DNA from: Acinetobacter proteolyticus | Lineage (GTDB): Bacteria; Pseudomonadota; Gammaproteobacteria; Pseudomonadales; Moraxellaceae | Length of the DNA stretch: 64,000 bases | Assembly (NCBI RefSeq): GCF_000367945.1 | Contig: NZ_KB849179.1 | Coordinates: 3,515,470 to 3,579,469, forward strand | Direction: 5' to 3' | Part shown: positions 55,062 to 63,522 of the stretch, in pieces | How the letters are laid out: each line of letters begins with the position of its first letter | How positions within the stretch are numbered: position 1 is the stretch's first letter | The notes under the pieces: generated by a model | Database searches by the model: none | Told to the model about the DNA's origin: nothing | The model's input: only the letters and a program-made list of their open reading frames with translations | Position numbers and translations under genes: made by a program

Positions 55062-55249
55062 TTGTTATTTTTCCCTAGTGTATTGAATTTAAATCATCTT
55101 GATCACCATACAAGAAATTGAAAATAGTGAACAATGTGATCAATGCTCAATTTGCTTGATGTATTTGGTCACTTGAGAAAAAACGCTGCGAACTTAGAGG
55201 GGGATCGGGTACACTAGCAATCAAATTGTTAGCCAGTATGGAACCAATG

Positions 55250-55507
55250 ATGTCTGATGAAATGACACTGGAAGAGCGTAAGGTTGTATATCGTGCCCGT
55301 CGTGGTTTAAAAGAAATCGATGTGTATTTCGACCCGTACGTTAAAAACTACTATTTAACTGCTGATGCTGCTGAAAAAGCCTTATTTGCCGAGCTCGTCG
55401 ATCAAGAAGACCCAGATTTATTGGATTGGTTTATGGAAGTGGGTGAGCCACCGCGTATTGAGTTAAAAGAGTTTATTCTCAAACTCAAACATTATGTGCA
55501 TGGCTAA
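55250..55507 (+). CDS. sdhE: succinate dehydrogenase flavinylation factor SdhE
   Basis: SdhE helps insert covalent FAD into SdhA and FrdA. The protein shows the conserved RARRGLKEIDVYFDPYV with the RGxxE motif and ends YVHG. The frame is open from a TTG at 55226 with in-frame ATGs at 55238, 55247 and 55250; the last gives an 85-residue protein of normal length with GGA six bases upstream. It overlaps the next gene by 8 bases. Confidence 0.93.
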   Translation: MSDEMTLEERKVVYRARRGLKEIDVYFDPYVKNYYLTADAAEKALFAELVDQEDPDLLDWFMEVGEPPRIELKEFILKLKHYVHG

Positions 55508-57878: not shown

Positions 57879-58448
57879 ATGAAAGATCAAATATGGATAA
57901 GGAAAATCATTTTGATCGCGATATGTATTTCCATATCGGCTTGTCTACAGGTGTTTGCGGATCATTTTATTTATTGGCGGCCTATCTTACTCACTGAGTT
58001 CTGGCGTATCTGGACCGCACATTGGGTGCATGTGGGGTGGATTCATTTTCTACTGAATATGATGGCCTTTGCCTGTTTGCCTTTTATTTTTCCGCATGTG
58101 CGTAATTGGCATTTAGGCGCATTACTCTTAATTCTGCCCCCGTTTATTAGTTTTATTTTTTATTTTTATTTGCCTTATATTGATGCCTATGCTGGGCTAT
58201 CTGGGGTTTTGCATGGTCTTTATACCGCAGTCGGCGTCGTGTATTTGCAATATAAGAACGAACGAAAATTTGCAATCTTGGTCTTAGCATTGATTGCGGT
58301 AAAACTGATTTGGGAAAATACCTTTGGGCAAACAGGAACAGCCCAGTTAATTGGAAGCCCAGTATTGACCGAGGCGCATTTGATTGGCGCTATCGGTGGT
58401 TTGCTCTGCGGTTTGAGTTACTTATTAATAAGAAAGATAAAAAATTAA
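57879..58448 (+). CDS. rrtA: rhombosortase (rhomboid-type intramembrane protease)
   Basis: A 189-residue polytopic serine protease of the rhomboid superfamily. HWVHVGWIHFLLNMMAF (48-64) is the rhomboid His/Asn region, GLSGVLHG carries the nucleophile Ser108, and EAHLIGAIGG carries the His167 partner. The compact size and spacing fit rhombosortases, which cleave GlyGly-CTERM proteins at the cell surface. No GlyGly-CTERM protein is encoded in this window. Confidence 0.85.
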   Translation: MKDQIWIRKIILIAICISISACLQVFADHFIYWRPILLTEFWRIWTAHWVHVGWIHFLLNMMAFACLPFIFPHVRNWHLGALLLILPPFISFIFYFYLPYIDAYAGLSGVLHGLYTAVGVVYLQYKNERKFAILVLALIAVKLIWENTFGQTGTAQLIGSPVLTEAHLIGAIGGLLCGLSYLLIRKIKN

Positions 58449-58501: not shown

Positions 58502-58604
58502 AGGGATTGGTTATAGCGAGGATAATTGTATTCTCTATCAACCATGTACATTGCAAGATTCGACATCTTCGGAGGGGTGTTGATCACAATAAACTGGAAT
58601 AGAT
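58502..58604 (+). promoter_or_regulatory. conserved leader of TRAP permease 1
   Basis: About 100 bases closely matching the leader of the second permease (61214-61317); the last 71 bases align without gaps. It contains the hairpin TCGACATC/GGTGTTGA (58560-58567 with 58576-58583), which pairs using two G-U pairs, with loop TTCGGAGG. Confidence 0.75.
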
Positions 58605-60815
58605 ATGCAACATGATCAACAGAAAAAAACTGGATTAGGTCTACTGAGTTATATTTGGACCGAGTGGATATCAACCTTTGTTATCCTTTTCTTATTACTC
58701 ATGACATTGATTATTGGCACGGGAGAAATGATCCACGGCCAGTTATTACGCATGGGGGAACGTTTGTATGGTGACCCTGCGATTGGAATGCAGTATTCAT
58801 TCCTTCGCGCCGAACCAGAAAAACCCACCTGTGACCGAAATCCCAATATCGATGCACAAGTTCAAGAGCAGATGCGGATGAATGCTGCCGATGAATTTGC
58901 CAGCATGTTTGGCGTGGCTTCTGAATCTGATGTACGCGCTTCTTTGATGGCGGCGCAGCAACAATGTGAAGAAAAATATCAATTTTATGATAAGGCAATG
59001 ACGCATATCGAGGCACATCCAAGTGTGCGGACCTATCGTCAGATTGAAACCAGTTTCTTTGGTATCTTTAAATTTGGTACAGAAAACCGTGCTTTATTCT
59101 TAGTGATTATGGTGGTGTTTGCGGCAATCACTGCCACTTTAAAGACTCATCATATTGGCTTACGCAGTCCAGCCACGAAAATTGATTTCCGTATCTATAG
59201 CATTGCGATGCTGATCGGGAATAGTTTGTTGACTTCATCGGTGATGAGTCAATATCGATCTGTGATGAACTCTGGTGTTCCGATCAGTCTGGAAATGACG
59301 CTGATTTATTGGTTATGGATGATTTTATTTGCAGTACTGACCTTGATCAGTCTATATCAGTTGATTAAGTCACCTACGCCAACCCGAGAAGGGGGAAGTG
59401 TTGGTTTAGCCTTCCTTAGCGTACCACTTTATGCCTATATGGCGATTATTACAGGGGTTGCCTTTACCATCTTCATGGCCTATCCAATGGGGCAAGGGAT
59501 TTATTTAGGGCAGTTGGTTGAGTTCTCGAGTATTTTCTTAAATCTGGCCCTGTTTATTTGGGCGGGCATGCTGTTAAAACAGACGCGCATTGTCGATTTA
59601 TTCCTCAATATCTTGCGTCCGTGGAATCTGGCACCTGAAACATTAACTTGGTTAATCTTAATTGCTGCGGCTTTACCGACGGCCTACACCGGCGCTTCGG
59701 GTATTTTCGTTATTGCAGCGGGTGCAATTATTTATAAAGAAGTCTGGAATGCAGGTGGGCGTCGCCAATTTGCTTTGGCTGCAACTGCACTGTCAGGTTC
59801 GCTTGGGGTGGTGCTTCGTCCATGTCTATTGATCGTGGTTGTGGCGTCATTGAATAAAGAAGTGACCACTGACCTGCTGTATCAATATGGCATGTACACC
59901 TTCTTATTAACCTCAACCTTATTCTTGGTGATTGCGCTGTTTTTTGCCGAACAGAAATTTAGAATTGCACCGTTCAAAATTGCCTTGCCAAAGTCGTTAC
60001 GTGCATTTGTGCCTGTATCACCTTATATCGTGATTTTCATTCTGATCTGGTTGTTCTATAAACATGCTTTGGCCACAGATCTGAATGAATTTACTGCACC
60101 TGTAATGATGCCAGTGATTTTATTACTGATGGTGTTGTTTGATAAATTACGTAAAGAACCTGCACCCTTAGCACCCGTTGGGCATTGGGACAGTACCTTG
60201 AATAGTTACACCATTCCGGCGGATGGTTCTCAACCTGCTGCGCCAATCAACCCCGCAGATGATCCGCGTAATCCTGTGCGCCGTGTTTCTTTTGGTAAAG
60301 CCTTGCATGTATCGACCAGTGAGACGGTTGGGCATATTGGGGCTTTGGTGATCCTCATGGCACTTTCGGTGAGTGTGGGTGGTTTCCTTGAACAGATCCA
60401 TATCATGGAAACTTTCCCGCAAGATATTAACAGCACCTATGTGGTGATCACACTGATTGTGTTGTTGATGATTTTTGTGGGCATGATTATGGACCCATTT
60501 GGGGCGGTGATTTTAATTACTGCAACCGTTGCGCCAGTGGCTTATCAGTATGGCATTGATCCTGTGCATTTCTGGATGATTGCATTGATTGGTTTTGAAT
60601 TGGGCTATGTCACGCCACCAGTTGCACTGAATCATTTATTGGCCAGACAGTCGATTGGTGATGCCGAAGTGGCAGAAGCGGATGCTGAAGTACGTCATTT
60701 GTCCTTCTTCTATCGCTATGAGCGCTGGATTTTACCGTTACTGGTGATGGTGCCTGCAATTCTGATCATTGCCTATGTTCCTTATACCTTTAAATTGTTT
60801 GGCTGGTATAGCTAG
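58605..60815 (+). CDS. TRAP-type transporter large permease, fused form, copy 1
   Basis: A 736-residue polytopic protein. Residues 1-40 hold the first membrane segment; about 41-160 form an extra-membrane domain with Cys76 and Cys121; several DctQ-like helices follow; and from about 300 on it is DctM-like, with LTWLILIAAALPTAYTGASG, VGMIMDPFGAVILITATVAP and ELGYVTPPVALNHL. TRAP systems use a soluble binding protein and sodium to import organic acids. No binding-protein gene is adjacent. It resembles copy 2 along its whole length. Confidence 0.88.
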   Translation: MQHDQQKKTGLGLLSYIWTEWISTFVILFLLLMTLIIGTGEMIHGQLLRMGERLYGDPAIGMQYSFLRAEPEKPTCDRNPNIDAQVQEQMRMNAADEFASMFGVASESDVRASLMAAQQQCEEKYQFYDKAMTHIEAHPSVRTYRQIETSFFGIFKFGTENRALFLVIMVVFAAITATLKTHHIGLRSPATKIDFRIYSIAMLIGNSLLTSSVMSQYRSVMNSGVPISLEMTLIYWLWMILFAVLTLISLYQLIKSPTPTREGGSVGLAFLSVPLYAYMAIITGVAFTIFMAYPMGQGIYLGQLVEFSSIFLNLALFIWAGMLLKQTRIVDLFLNILRPWNLAPETLTWLILIAAALPTAYTGASGIFVIAAGAIIYKEVWNAGGRRQFALAATALSGSLGVVLRPCLLIVVVASLNKEVTTDLLYQYGMYTFLLTSTLFLVIALFFAEQKFRIAPFKIALPKSLRAFVPVSPYIVIFILIWLFYKHALATDLNEFTAPVMMPVILLLMVLFDKLRKEPAPLAPVGHWDSTLNSYTIPADGSQPAAPINPADDPRNPVRRVSFGKALHVSTSETVGHIGALVILMALSVSVGGFLEQIHIMETFPQDINSTYVVITLIVLLMIFVGMIMDPFGAVILITATVAPVAYQYGIDPVHFWMIALIGFELGYVTPPVALNHLLARQSIGDAEVAEADAEVRHLSFFYRYERWILPLLVMVPAILIIAYVPYTFKLFGWYS

Positions 60816-60836
60816 GTGTAAGACGTTAAAGATCAA

Positions 60837-60864
60837 AACAAGCACCTGAGGGTGCTTGTTTTTT
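60837..60864 (+). terminator. intrinsic terminator of TRAP permease 1
   Basis: AACAAGCACC pairs with GGTGCTTGTT around a short TGAG-type loop, followed by a T run. Confidence 0.9.
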
Positions 60865-61213
60865 GTAAGAGAAACAGGATTGACTGTTAGGGAGATAAAA
60901 TTCGGGTGAAAAAAGTACAATAGATGAATTTAGACTAGTGATGATTATTATGTGATTAAAATAACATTTTGAGATCGAAGTAGTTATGCTATAAATAGAC
61001 GAAAAAGATGGAGTAGCTTAGTTTAGGGCGAATTTATCTTATGATAGAGGGAACGGTAAAAAGACAATTTAGTGCGCTAAATTGTTAATTAAAATAAGGA
61101 TGAAATTAGAGGGCAGTCGAGAGTACATATAAATTGATAAAAACAACCAACAAAAAAGTGATTGCAGTCATTCTTTTTTCTAAAAGTTTGCTGCAAATTT
61201 AAGCGGTTTAAAA
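60865..61213. other. AT-rich spacer between the two TRAP permeases
   Basis: About 350 bases without a supported gene. A perfect ACAATTTAG/CTAAATTGT hairpin lies at 61065-61086, and TTGAGA with TATAAA (60969-60995) is a weak promoter candidate. I saw no gene remnant or insertion-sequence end. Confidence 0.5.
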
Positions 61214-61317
61214 AGGGATTGGTGATTCAAAGGGTAAATTCATTTATCTATCAACCATGGACATCGCATGATTCAACATCTTTGGATGGATGTTGATAAC
61301 AATAAATTGGAATAGAC
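61214..61317 (+). promoter_or_regulatory. conserved leader of TRAP permease 2
   Basis: Second copy of the leader described at 58502. Here the hairpin is a perfect TCAACATC/GATGTTGA (61273-61280 with 61289-61296), with loop TTTGGATG, 22 bases before the ATG. Confidence 0.75.
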
Positions 61318-63522
61318 ATGCAAAATGATCAAGAGAATAAGACTGGATTAGCCCGGTTAGGCTATATCTGGAATGACTGGATATCAACCTTCATTATTCT
61401 TGCTTTGTTGCTAATGACTTTGCTTATTGGTACAGGCGAAATGATTCACGGTCAGATGCTTCGTATGGGGGAGCGTTTATACGGTGATCAAACAACAGGG
61501 ATGCAATACTCGTTTTTACGTGCTGAACCTGAAAAACCATCTTGTGATCGACATCCAAACATTGATGCACAAGTTCAAGAGCAGATGAAAGCCAATGCTG
61601 CCGATGAATTTGCGAGTATGTTTGGTGCAGCTTCTGAAGCTGATGTGCGTGCGTCTTTATTGGCAGCACAACAACAGTGTGAAGAAAAATACCAATTCTA
61701 CGATAAAGCAATGAAACATTTGGAAGCGCATCCAAGTATTCGTACCTATCGTAAAGTTGAAACTACCTTCTTCGGTATCTTTAAACTCGGTTCTGAAAAC
61801 CAAACTGTTATTTTGTTGGTGATGGTACTGTTTGCTTCAATTACAGCGTCTTTACGTTACCATCACATTGGTTTGCGTGCACCAAAAACCAAAATTGACT
61901 TCCGTGTTTATTCGGCGTTAATGGTTGCGGGTAATGCTCTACTTAGCTACTCCGTCGTCAGTCAATATCATTCAGTCTTGAATTCTGGGGTTGAGGTTGC
62001 GGGTAAAACGGCTGTCTTATATTGGCTGTGGATTGCACTGTTTGTGTCTCTGACCATTATCAGTATTTTCCAGTTCATCTTTATTCCAAAAACAGCACAA
62101 CCGAAAGGTAACTTTGGTTTAGCCTTACTCAGCGTGCCGTTGTATGCCTTCATGTCTTTGGTGACAGGGATTGTATTTACCTTCTTCATGGATTATCCAA
62201 TGGGGCAAGGGATTTACTTGGGTATCTTGGTTGAATTCTCGGGTATTTTCTTAAATCTGGCATTGTTCATCTGGGCAGGTATGTTACTGACCCAGACCCG
62301 TGTCATGGATTTATTCTTAAATATCTTACGTCCATGGAACTTGGCACCTGAAACCTTAACCTGGTTAATCTTGATTGCAGCTGCGATTCCAACAGCCTAT
62401 ACGGGTGCTTCGGGGATTTTCGTTATTGCAGCGGGTGCGATCATCTATAAAGAAGTCTGGAACTCTGGTGCACGTCGTCAATACGCCTTAGCTGTATCGG
62501 CAATGTCAGGTTCTTTAGGTGTGGTGATTCGTCCATGTTTACTCGTCATCCTGATCTCGATGCTGGACAGCCGTCATGTAACATCGACGGAATTATTTGA
62601 TCACGGTATCTATGTCTTCTGGTTAACAGCGTTCATCTTCTTGGGTGTTTCTCTGATTCTTGCTGAAGAAAAATTCCGTGTGAACTCGCCTAAAATCGCC
62701 GTGCCAGGCATGTTACGTGCCTGCGTACCTGTGATTCCTTATGTGATCATTGGTTTTGCTGTGGTGATGTTCTATAAGCTTGCTTTAGATACGTCAATCA
62801 ATGAGTTTACTGCGCCAATGATTTTACCGTTGGTGTTGATTGCAATGATCTTGTTTGACAAATTATTTGCGTCAAAACTTGCACCTGCACCAGTAGTAGA
62901 TCCTAAGCATGAAGCTTTGGTTCGTGAACATGAGAAAAAATCAGAATTCTTGAAATCACATGATCCTCATGGCAGCAAGAGCTTTGGTTTTGGTGGTGCA
63001 CTTCGTTTTGCAACCTCGGAAACAGTGGGTCACATTGGTGCCTTAATCCTATTGATGGCCTTGTCTGCAAGCGTGGGTGGTCTAATCGAACGTGCTGAAG
63101 TGGTTGAGTTATTACCGACTCACTTGGGTAATATCTATATTTCACTTGCCTTCATTGCGTTATTACTTGCGATTATTGGGATGACAACTGATCCATTTGG
63201 AGCGGTGATTCTGGTTGCTGCAACGGTTGCGCCTGTCGCCTACGAGAATGGTATCCATCCGATCCACTTCTGGATGATCGTATTGGTGGCATTCGAATTT
63301 GGTTATGTAACGCCGCCGGTCGCTTTGAACCACTTGCTGACGCGACTCTCCGTCGGGGACGAGGAGGTCTCGGCTGCCGATAAGGAAGCGAAAGAGAAAT
63401 ACACCAGTTTCTACTTCCGCTATGAACGTTGGATCTTGCCAATTATCGTATTGTTCTCATCGTTGGTGTTGGTGACCTATGCACCGTATATCTTCCAGAT
63501 GTTTGGCTGGTATAAGCACTAA
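61318..63522 (+). CDS. TRAP-type transporter large permease, fused form, copy 2
   Basis: A 734-residue paralogue of the protein at 58605 with the same layout: first membrane segment at about 20-38, extra-membrane domain with Cys76 and Cys121 at identical positions, DctQ-like helices, and the DctM part with LTWLILIAAAIPTAYTGASG, IGMTTDPFGAVILVAATVAP and EFGYVTPPVALNHL. The extra-membrane domain is highly conserved between copies; the cytoplasmic loop near residues 520-550 is the most divergent part. Confidence 0.88.
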   Translation: MQNDQENKTGLARLGYIWNDWISTFIILALLLMTLLIGTGEMIHGQMLRMGERLYGDQTTGMQYSFLRAEPEKPSCDRHPNIDAQVQEQMKANAADEFASMFGAASEADVRASLLAAQQQCEEKYQFYDKAMKHLEAHPSIRTYRKVETTFFGIFKLGSENQTVILLVMVLFASITASLRYHHIGLRAPKTKIDFRVYSALMVAGNALLSYSVVSQYHSVLNSGVEVAGKTAVLYWLWIALFVSLTIISIFQFIFIPKTAQPKGNFGLALLSVPLYAFMSLVTGIVFTFFMDYPMGQGIYLGILVEFSGIFLNLALFIWAGMLLTQTRVMDLFLNILRPWNLAPETLTWLILIAAAIPTAYTGASGIFVIAAGAIIYKEVWNSGARRQYALAVSAMSGSLGVVIRPCLLVILISMLDSRHVTSTELFDHGIYVFWLTAFIFLGVSLILAEEKFRVNSPKIAVPGMLRACVPVIPYVIIGFAVVMFYKLALDTSINEFTAPMILPLVLIAMILFDKLFASKLAPAPVVDPKHEALVREHEKKSEFLKSHDPHGSKSFGFGGALRFATSETVGHIGALILLMALSASVGGLIERAEVVELLPTHLGNIYISLAFIALLLAIIGMTTDPFGAVILVAATVAPVAYENGIHPIHFWMIVLVAFEFGYVTPPVALNHLLTRLSVGDEEVSAADKEAKEKYTSFYFRYERWILPIIVLFSSLVLVTYAPYIFQMFGWYKH

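What the first reader, a model, noticed from the sequence alone, without database searches (positions are those of the whole stretch)
58502..61317. Duplicated leader with a pairing-preserving hairpin in front of two TRAP permeases
The roughly 100 bases before each permease are copies of one another, with the last 71 bases gap-free. Within them an 8-bp stem differs at two positions, and both differences turn A-T pairs into G-U pairs, so the fold is kept while the sequence drifts. The loop holds a GGA (TTTGGATG or TTCGGAGG), the core of CsrA/RsmA sites, and sits just upstream of the start. An in-frame mini-ORF in copy 1 is broken in copy 2, so the RNA, not a peptide, looks conserved. CsrA control is inference.
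Basis: partly seen in the sequence, partly recalled or inferred. Interest (0 to 1): 0.6.

Follow-up and report, generated by a model that had tools for sequence, protein, structure and literature searches.

The report
CsrA-type leader of Acinetobacter TRAP permeases
The RNA in front of two transporter genes in an Acinetobacter genome folds into hairpins that, across most of the genus sampled, hold up a GGA signal of the kind bound by the global regulator CsrA, so these transporters are probably under CsrA control, although binding itself has not been shown.

Summary
The two leaders are about 80% identical, the last 71 bases gap-free, and the 8-bp stem differs at two positions, both A-U to G·U, with GGA in the loop. 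The duplication itself is weak evidence: leader similarity does not follow permease paralogy (81% leader with 64% protein; 63% leader with 79% protein between orthologs), and within the window's clade there is no covariation above shuffles.

Across the genus the case is strong. Of 117 distinct leaders, 93 have a GGA-in-loop hairpin at -6 kcal/mol or better, against 11% of shuffles and 10% of 399 other upstream regions. Two or more ANGGA: 67 of 117 against 5 of 399. Stem arms covary over 37 sequence clusters (0 of 5000 arm swaps reach the observed pairing). The site is usually in hairpin 1; the window's clade has it in hairpin 2 (-34), without the A of A(N)GGA. The GGA at -9 is mostly unpaired. 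The genome has one CsrA.

Best reading: a CsrA/RsmA-type leader, most likely repressing translation. Binding is inferred. No Rfam family matches.

The parts
58508..58544 (+). Copy 1, hairpin 1 (position of the ANGGA hairpin of most other species); its GGA at 58520-58522 is predicted to be paired
   Evidence: MFE fold; unpaired probability of this GGA 0.07
58560..58583 (+). Copy 1, hairpin 2, the stem of the finding; loop TTCGGAGG with GGA at 58571-58573 (-34)
   Evidence: GGA unpaired probability 1.0
58596..58598 (+). Copy 1, GGA of the ribosome-binding region (-9 to -7)
   Evidence: unpaired probability 0.91
58544..58615 (+). Copy 1 mini-ORF, out of frame with the permease and overlapping its start; not conserved in copy 2, L003 or L010
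   Evidence: sequence
58605..60815 (+). Permease copy 1, 736 aa, DctM family
   Evidence: Pfam PF06808 E 5.1e-17
60839..60865 (+). Terminator-like hairpin with T run after copy 1 (read by eye; the scan did not list it)
   Evidence: sequence
61192..61198 (+). Copy 2, upstream block TGCAAAT, promoter or regulator site of unknown kind
   Evidence: TGCA[AC]A[TG] in 68 of 117 leaders (170 bases searched) against 11 of 399 control regions (130 bases searched)
61220..61257 (+). Copy 2, hairpin 1 (GGG where most other species have GGA)
   Evidence: MFE fold; helix counts
61259..61261 (+). Copy 2, GGA of AUGGAC between the hairpins (-59), an A(N)GGAX match
   Evidence: unpaired probability 0.77
61273..61296 (+). 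Copy 2, hairpin 2, the stem of the finding; loop TTTGGATG with GGA at 61284-61286 (-34)
   Evidence: GGA unpaired probability 1.0
61298..61305 (+). Copy 2, AACAATAA, a match to the Hfq/Crc motif AAnAAnAA just before the ribosome-binding region
   Evidence: AANAANAA in the last 34 bases of 61% of 44 cluster representatives against 22% of 399 controls
61309..61311 (+). Copy 2, GGA of the ribosome-binding region (-9 to -7)
   Evidence: unpaired probability 0.81
61318..63522 (+). Permease copy 2, 734 aa, DctM family
   Evidence: Pfam PF06808 E 5.9e-15

Best explanation
The ~100-base leader is a CsrA/RsmA-type 5' untranslated region typical of Acinetobacter. A hairpin presents a GGA (usually ANGGA) in its loop, and a second GGA lies in the accessible ribosome-binding region. 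The most likely working is that of E. coli glgC: CsrA binds the hairpin loop (and, where present, a single-stranded ANGGA between the hairpins), and the other face of the dimer reaches the GGA at -9 and keeps the ribosome off, so that the permease is made when CsrA is titrated or scarce. Shown here: hairpins, loop GGA, covariation, extra ANGGA motifs, accessible GGA at -9, presence of CsrA. Inferred: CsrA binding, and the sign of the effect (repression likelier than activation). The two leaders in the window resemble each other because leader sequence has been exchanged or homogenised between the two permease genes (inferred from pairwise identities), and in this clade the loop GGA sits in hairpin 2 instead of hairpin 1. 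The confidence is for a CsrA-type leader of either sign; the first two rivals can be true together with it.
For: 104 of 117 distinct leaders have a GGA-in-loop hairpin at E<=-2 and 93 of 117 at E<=-6; at E<=-6 that is 79.5% against 11.3% of 1170 dinucleotide shuffles and 10.3% of 399 other upstream regions. Among 11 gene families of the same loci with at least 12 members the permease is first (77% of 81 upstreams, mean upstream identity 0.37); the second (64% of 42, a 131-aa family) scores through the coding sequence of the preceding gene, and the other nine are at 13% or less. Two or more ANGGA: 67 of 117 against 5 of 399. With the site chosen without folding, 37 sequence clusters give 3.46 of 7 Watson-Crick pairs with matched arms and 2.45 with swapped arms, 0 of 5000 permutations reaching it; registers off the stem's diagonal are reached by 137 to 2314 of 5000. 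GGA in the last 18 bases: 114 of 117, controls 120 of 399; mean unpaired probability 0.75 over 43 representatives. One CsrA of 87 aa in the own genome, and CsrA in 37 of 37 genus genomes sampled. The spacing from the hairpin-2 GGA to the GGA at -9 is 22 nt, inside the 10-63 nt bridging range reported for CsrA (PMC7652899, passages).
Against: No binding or expression data. The window's own loop GGAs (UUUGGAUG, UUCGGAGG) lack the A of A(N)GGA, and copy 1 has no ANGGA at all in the stretch tested. The covarying register makes the loop NGGANN; the register of the ideal ANGGAX hexaloop (2+3+1) is not enriched (2.11 against 1.99, 1333 of 5000; ideal from PMC4005645, passages). In the enriched register 11 to 19 of 37 clusters lack a standard pair at each of the eight positions. 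A at -2 of loop GGAs is 27 of 37, but 39 of 68 also in control loops. 13 of 117 leaders have no loop-GGA hairpin at E<=-2, three of them with GGG instead. Most SELEX hairpins had four or fewer contiguous pairs (PMC7652899, passages), and these stems are mostly longer. From hairpin 1 the spacing to -9 is about 63 nt, the upper end of bridging. Within the window's clade there is no covariation above shuffles. Clusters share ancestry, so permutation counts are not probabilities. Outside the genus 7 of 20 upstream regions also have a GGA loop at E<=-6, so the loop test alone is less specific there.
Confidence: 0.72

Rival explanations
1. Same leader, same protein, opposite sign: CsrA binding to the 5' hairpins protects or opens the mRNA and raises permease expression.
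For: Deletion of csrA in A. baumannii ATCC 19606 gave a mutant unable to use a broad range of carbon sources including amino acids (PMC8567240, abstract and passages), so some uptake or catabolic functions need CsrA. In most species outside the window's clade the hairpin lies well upstream of the start (mostly -69 to -83).
Against: A GGA also lies in the last 18 bases of 114 of 117 leaders, and that region is already open (mean unpaired probability 0.75), which leaves little for CsrA to open.
Confidence: 0.2
2. Hfq (with Crc) is the main regulator: it binds the A-rich tail just before the ribosome-binding region, as in carbon catabolite repression of Pseudomonas; the hairpins are secondary.
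For: AANAANAA in the last 34 bases: 61% of 44 representatives against 22% of 399 controls and 18% of shuffles. Five ARN triplets in a row: 30% against 0% of controls and 1% of shuffles. The CA-motif consensus AAnAAnAA is quoted in PMC8312277 (one passage).
Against: Does not explain the GGA loops, extra ANGGA motifs or stem covariation. A-rich tails can also simply help translation (general knowledge). Hfq and Crc were not searched in this genome.
Confidence: 0.15
3. Anti-Shine-Dalgarno switch: in this clade the 3' arm of hairpin 1 (UCUAUCAACCA) pairs with UGGAAUAGA at the start site, and a ligand or temperature chooses between the folds.
For: RNAalifold picks this pairing in the consensus of 25 clade leaders, with each of its 8 pairs kept in 23 to 25 of 25.
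Against: None of its pairs has a change on both sides. Over 44 representatives, complementarity of a leader to its own start region is no better than to swapped ones (-6.52 against -6.57 kcal/mol; shuffled leaders -6.13).
Confidence: 0.07
4. Structured leader without a dedicated binder (mRNA stability or ribosome standby only).
For: Both hairpin regions are more stable than shuffles (mean z -1.65 and -2.10 over all 117 leaders; the same windows in 100 controls -0.35 and -0.28).
Against: Does not predict a fixed GGA in the loop while the stem letters turn over.
Confidence: 0.1

Closest known systems
E. coli glgC leader repressed by CsrA (as described in PMC7652899, passages)
   Same: GGA in a hairpin loop upstream plus a GGA at the ribosome-binding site; several GGA motifs in one leader.
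   Different: Different gene; glgC's hairpin is described as just upstream of the ribosome-binding site, whereas the GGA hairpin of most Acinetobacter leaders lies about 60-65 nt upstream of it. CsrA binding is untested here.
Pseudomonas fluorescens hcnA and RsmZ stem-loops bound by RsmE (PMC4005645, passages)
   Same: A(N)GGA in the loop of short hairpins, and single-stranded GGA between hairpins.
   Different: In most Acinetobacter leaders the A can pair with a U across the loop, so the ANGGAX hexaloop is not the covarying register; in the window's clade the loop GGA lacks the A.
Hfq/Crc-controlled leaders of Pseudomonas (CA motif, quoted in PMC8312277, one passage)
   Same: A-rich AAnAAnAA-like run next to the ribosome-binding region of a transporter gene.
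   Different: As far as I know (recalled) GGA hairpins are not part of that system.

Membership tests
CsrA/RsmA-regulated mRNA leader | GGA presented in a hairpin loop or single strand | tested here: met
   104 of 117 leaders (E<=-2), 93 of 117 (E<=-6), against 10-11% at E<=-6 in controls; both window copies have it in hairpin 2
CsrA/RsmA-regulated mRNA leader | A(N)GGAX core | tested here: inconclusive
   ANGGA in 109 of 117 leaders against 122 of 399 controls; A at -2 in 27 of 37 loop sites against 39 of 68 control loops. Copy 2 of the window has it in the linker, not in its hairpin-2 loop; copy 1 has no ANGGA, only an AGGA in a paired stretch
CsrA/RsmA-regulated mRNA leader | High-affinity form: ANGGAX hexaloop directly on the stem | tested here: not met
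   Register 2+3+1 not enriched (2.11 against 1.99, 1333 of 5000); enriched register is 1+3+2. The paper describes weaker bound forms without this geometry, so this bears on affinity, not on binding as such
CsrA/RsmA-regulated mRNA leader | More than one site, one at the ribosome-binding region, 10-63 nt apart | tested here: met
   GGA in the last 18 bases in 114 of 117 (controls 120 of 399); window spacing from -34 to -9 is 22 nt
CsrA/RsmA-regulated mRNA leader | CsrA encoded in the same genome | tested here: met
CsrA/RsmA-regulated mRNA leader | CsrA binds the RNA and changes expression | not testable with these tools
   No such data met in the listings and passages
Hfq/Crc target | AAnAAnAA near the ribosome-binding site | tested here: met
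   61% of 44 representatives against 22% of controls; present in copy 2 as AACAATAA, not in copy 1 (CACAATAA)
Hfq/Crc target | Hfq and Crc bind and repress | not tested
   -
Rfam families (riboswitches, known leaders) | Covariance-model match at gathering score | tested here: not met
   0 matches in the window; none of the 7 weak matches at E<=5 lies in the hairpins named here
Leader-peptide attenuator | Conserved short ORF | tested here: inconclusive
   The mini-ORF's frame is slightly more open than shuffles (1.02 against 1.44 stops; ATG-open 7 of 44 against 3.8, sd 2.0), and an ATG at -75 to -45 opening at least 15 codons is in 44 of 117 leaders against 31, sd 5, in shuffles (14 of 44 representatives against 11, sd 2.9; controls 99 of 399). 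The peptides differ and the frame breaks between close relatives

The most novel reading that the evidence does not exclude
A genus-specific leader that reads two global carbon regulators at once: CsrA through a GGA hairpin and Hfq/Crc through an ARN-rich run at the ribosome-binding region. The CsrA site has moved from one hairpin to the other in one clade while the architecture stayed, and leaders have been passed between tandem permease genes as exchangeable modules.
Probability: 0.2. Interest if true: 0.6.

Novelty: new member of a known kind. Interest (0 to 1): 0.42.

Why it matters
In the paper searches made here (mostly listings) I saw no map of CsrA-bound RNAs in Acinetobacter; the one Acinetobacter CsrA paper looked into (PMC8567240, abstract and passages) is about mutant phenotypes. 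A conserved, testable leader in front of a widespread transporter family (146 of 175 genus genomes) would offer a well-defined candidate target, and a case of a protein-binding RNA site turning over under constraint.

Tried and rejected
Rfam at gathering and at E<=5: nothing relevant. Sigma-70 and terminator scans: nothing listed, so the transcription start is unknown. Clade-only covariation: not above shuffles, so not used as support. Anti-Shine-Dalgarno pairing: not supported beyond the clade. Leader peptide: unlikely, not excluded; a slight excess of open frame is told in the membership table. Extension beyond the genus: 20 upstream regions from other genera of the family; 7 of 20 have a GGA loop at E<=-6 but 0 of 20 have two ANGGA, and by eye I see no shared architecture; start choice there is uncertain, and two of the 20 (L224, L225) are the same genes as L065. 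Binding-protein partner of the permease: no DctP in the genome, three weak TAXI-like hits. The arm-swap test picks sites by folding and is biased towards pairing; choose sites without folding. The 44 representatives are the best-folding member of each cluster, which biases the z-score of hairpin 1; one search repeats it on all 117.

Dropped or left out: one search kept the best 80 of 111 relatives (79 loci). L057 was dropped (start outside the locus). Of 150 places printed (a cut list), 80 were fetched as leaders, 30 were held as L111-L140 but not used, and 40 were not fetched; the choice was mine, by eye. For five leaders (L208-L211, L218) the start was moved to the nearest in-frame ATG. Of 169 leaders 117 are distinct; two of these (L065) are from Alkanindiges, not Acinetobacter. 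The 399 controls are not deduplicated by gene family, include coding sequence, and have mechanical longest-ORF starts.
Full report
What was checked. The window lies in an Acinetobacter genome: its permeases are 98.5% and 99.6% identical to those of A. gyllenbergii CIP 110306 (L003). The finding concerns the ~100 bases before two DctM-family permeases of 736 and 734 aa (58605-60815, 61318-63522), downstream of a rhombosortase gene (57879-58448). The description is accurate: gap-free last 71 bases, an 8-bp stem with two A-U to G·U differences, loop GGA at -34 in both copies. The mini-ORF of copy 1 is out of frame with the permease.

What the two copies do and do not show. Leader identity does not follow permease paralogy. 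Copy 1 and copy 2 leaders are 81% identical while the proteins are 64%. The copy-2 leader and that of its ortholog in A. nosocomialis (L023) are 63% identical while the proteins are 79%. The leader of the copy-1-type gene of A. haemolyticus (L067) is 90% identical to the copy-2 leader while the proteins are 65%. In another clade L071 (copy-1 type) and L032 (copy-2 type) share 85% of the leader and 66% of the protein. The simplest reading is that leaders were exchanged or homogenised between the paralogs after they diverged; this is inference from pairwise identities of 15 genes, and no tree was built. On 25 clade leaders the named stem is 99.5% paired, but 4 of its 8 pairs never vary and 3 change on one side only. 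The covariation score of the whole two-hairpin structure (0.071) is not above shuffles (0.068; 89 of 500 reach it).

Test across the genus. I collected 169 leaders, 117 of them distinct: 2 from the window, 87 from the 79 named loci (one locus, L057, dropped) and 80 from unnamed genus genomes. Two of the 117 (L065) are from Alkanindiges. The recurring plan, read by eye, is an upstream TGCAAATTT-like block, hairpin 1, a linker often with AAGGA, hairpin 2, an A-rich tail, GGA at -9, ATG. A hairpin with GGA in its loop is present in 104 of 117 at E<=-2, 98 at -4 and 93 at -6. At E<=-6 the rates are 79.5% for leaders, 11.3% for 1170 shuffles and 10.3% for 399 other upstream regions; at -10 they are 41.9%, 1.1% and 1.5%. 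Of 16 loop trinucleotides tried, GGA is the commonest in leaders at each threshold. A per-family control puts the permease first of 11 families (77% of 81). The second (64% of 42) scores because the scored stretch lies in the conserved coding sequence of the preceding small gene (GGUUUAUGGAAGU, read as WFMEV in the 93-aa ORF at 55226-55507), and the other nine are at 13% or less. Exceptions at E<=-2 are 13 of 117: L050 copy 1, both L065 genes, L032, L033, L051, L052, L055, L056, L061, L078, L152 and L184. L032, L033 and L061 carry GGG at the place of GGA.

Covariation. Taking, without folding, the first ANGGA between -92 and -58, 96 leaders fall into 37 sequence clusters. In register 1+3+2 matched arms give 3.46 Watson-Crick pairs of 7 and swapped arms 2.45; none of 5000 permutations reaches the observed value. 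The two neighbouring registers on the same diagonal behave alike. Seven registers off that diagonal are reached by 137 to 2314 of 5000 permutations, among them the 2+3+1 register of an ANGGAX hexaloop (1333 of 5000). With only leaders that have a single GGA there (62 leaders, 26 clusters) the result is 3.35 against 2.36, 0 of 5000. Pairs 3 to 5 of the stem take five or six standard types across the 37 clusters, while 11 to 19 of the 37 lack a standard pair at each of the eight positions, so loop size and register vary. Clusters share ancestry, so the permutation counts are not probabilities. Both hairpin regions are more stable than shuffles (mean z -1.65 and -2.10, all 117 leaders; 100 controls -0.35 and -0.28).

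Other sites. Two or more ANGGA occur in 67 of 117 leaders and 5 of 399 controls; at least one in 109 of 117 and 122 of 399. GGA in the last 18 bases: 114 of 117 and 120 of 399, but control starts are mechanical. At E<=-3 the loop GGA is in the hairpin-1 region in 66 leaders, in the hairpin-2 region in 26, in both in 8 and in neither in 17. Of the window's leaders, copy 2 has AUGGAC in the linker (-59), UUUGGAUG in the hairpin-2 loop (-34) and UUGGAAU at -9. Copy 1 has UUCGGAGG (-34), CUGGAAU (-9) and a GGA buried in hairpin 1 (unpaired probability 0.07). Against the published core A(N)GGAX (PMC4005645, passages) the window's loop sites are imperfect, and copy 1 is the poorer target.

Peptide. 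Over 44 representatives the frame of the copy-1 mini-ORF has 1.02 stops in 22 codons against 1.44 in shuffles, and 7 of 44 have an ATG-open stretch of at least 12 codons against 3.8 (sd 2.0); the other two frames are not more open than shuffles. An ATG at -75 to -45 opening at least 15 codons is in 44 of 117 leaders against 31 (sd 5) in shuffles, and in 14 of 44 representatives against 11 (sd 2.9); in controls 99 of 399. The peptides differ between groups and the frame breaks between close relatives. I read this as weak evidence for a peptide at best.

Mechanism. The genome has one CsrA of 87 aa, with MLILTRR at its start and VHREEIYQRI in its middle. CsrA is in 37 of 37 genus genomes of the sample and in 58 of 58 with other families of the order. 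The layout fits the glgC model of a hairpin-tethered dimer reaching the ribosome-binding site (PMC7652899, passages), with a 22-nt gap in the window. Repression is the likelier sign; activation is not excluded, as csrA deletion in A. baumannii costs the use of amino acids and other carbon sources (PMC8567240, abstract and passages). A second input is possible: the tail is enriched in AANAANAA (61% of 44 representatives, 22% of controls, 18% of shuffles) and in five ARN triplets (30%, 0%, 1%), the motif class of Hfq/Crc (PMC8312277, one passage).

Limits and novelty. Nothing here shows binding. Outside the genus the permease occurs (13 of 16 genera of the family sample have a match, own genus included and some weak). 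Of 20 upstream regions taken there 7 have a GGA loop at E<=-6 and 0 have two ANGGA, and by eye they do not show the architecture. In the open library searched, I met no paper that links CsrA, Acinetobacter and this permease. These are search listings, except for passages of the papers named above and of PMC12455925, where the terms TRAP, C4-dicarboxylate and tripartite do not occur. It is filed as a new member of a known kind, probable but unproven.

Noticed in passing
58605-60815 and 61318-63522: The DctM permeases have no DctP (PF03480) match anywhere in the genome, and only three weak TAXI-like (PF16868) hits elsewhere, so how these permeases receive substrate is unclear.
   Followed up: partly
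61192-61198 and upstream of other leaders: A TGCAAATTT-like block, mostly 109-126 bases before the start, recurs in 68 of 117 leaders (11 of 399 controls, searched over 130 rather than 170 bases); I do not see it before copy 1 of the window. Promoter element or regulator site unknown.
   Followed up: partly
58605-60815 against 61318-63522: Nucleotide identity of the two permease genes is a mosaic along the gene (60-base steps from 39% to 85% in the coding part), with high blocks in the first half; gene conversion is possible.
   Followed up: no
G100:C9:471324-474842: In one genus genome the permease is split into two matches with a stop each, possibly a decaying gene.
   Followed up: no
G000:C3:2704780-2705169: A third, weaker DctM-like match in a 523-aa open frame elsewhere in the genome (L243).
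   Followed up: no
57879-58448: Rhombosortase (TIGR03902, 142.7 bits) directly upstream of the permease pair.
   Followed up: no
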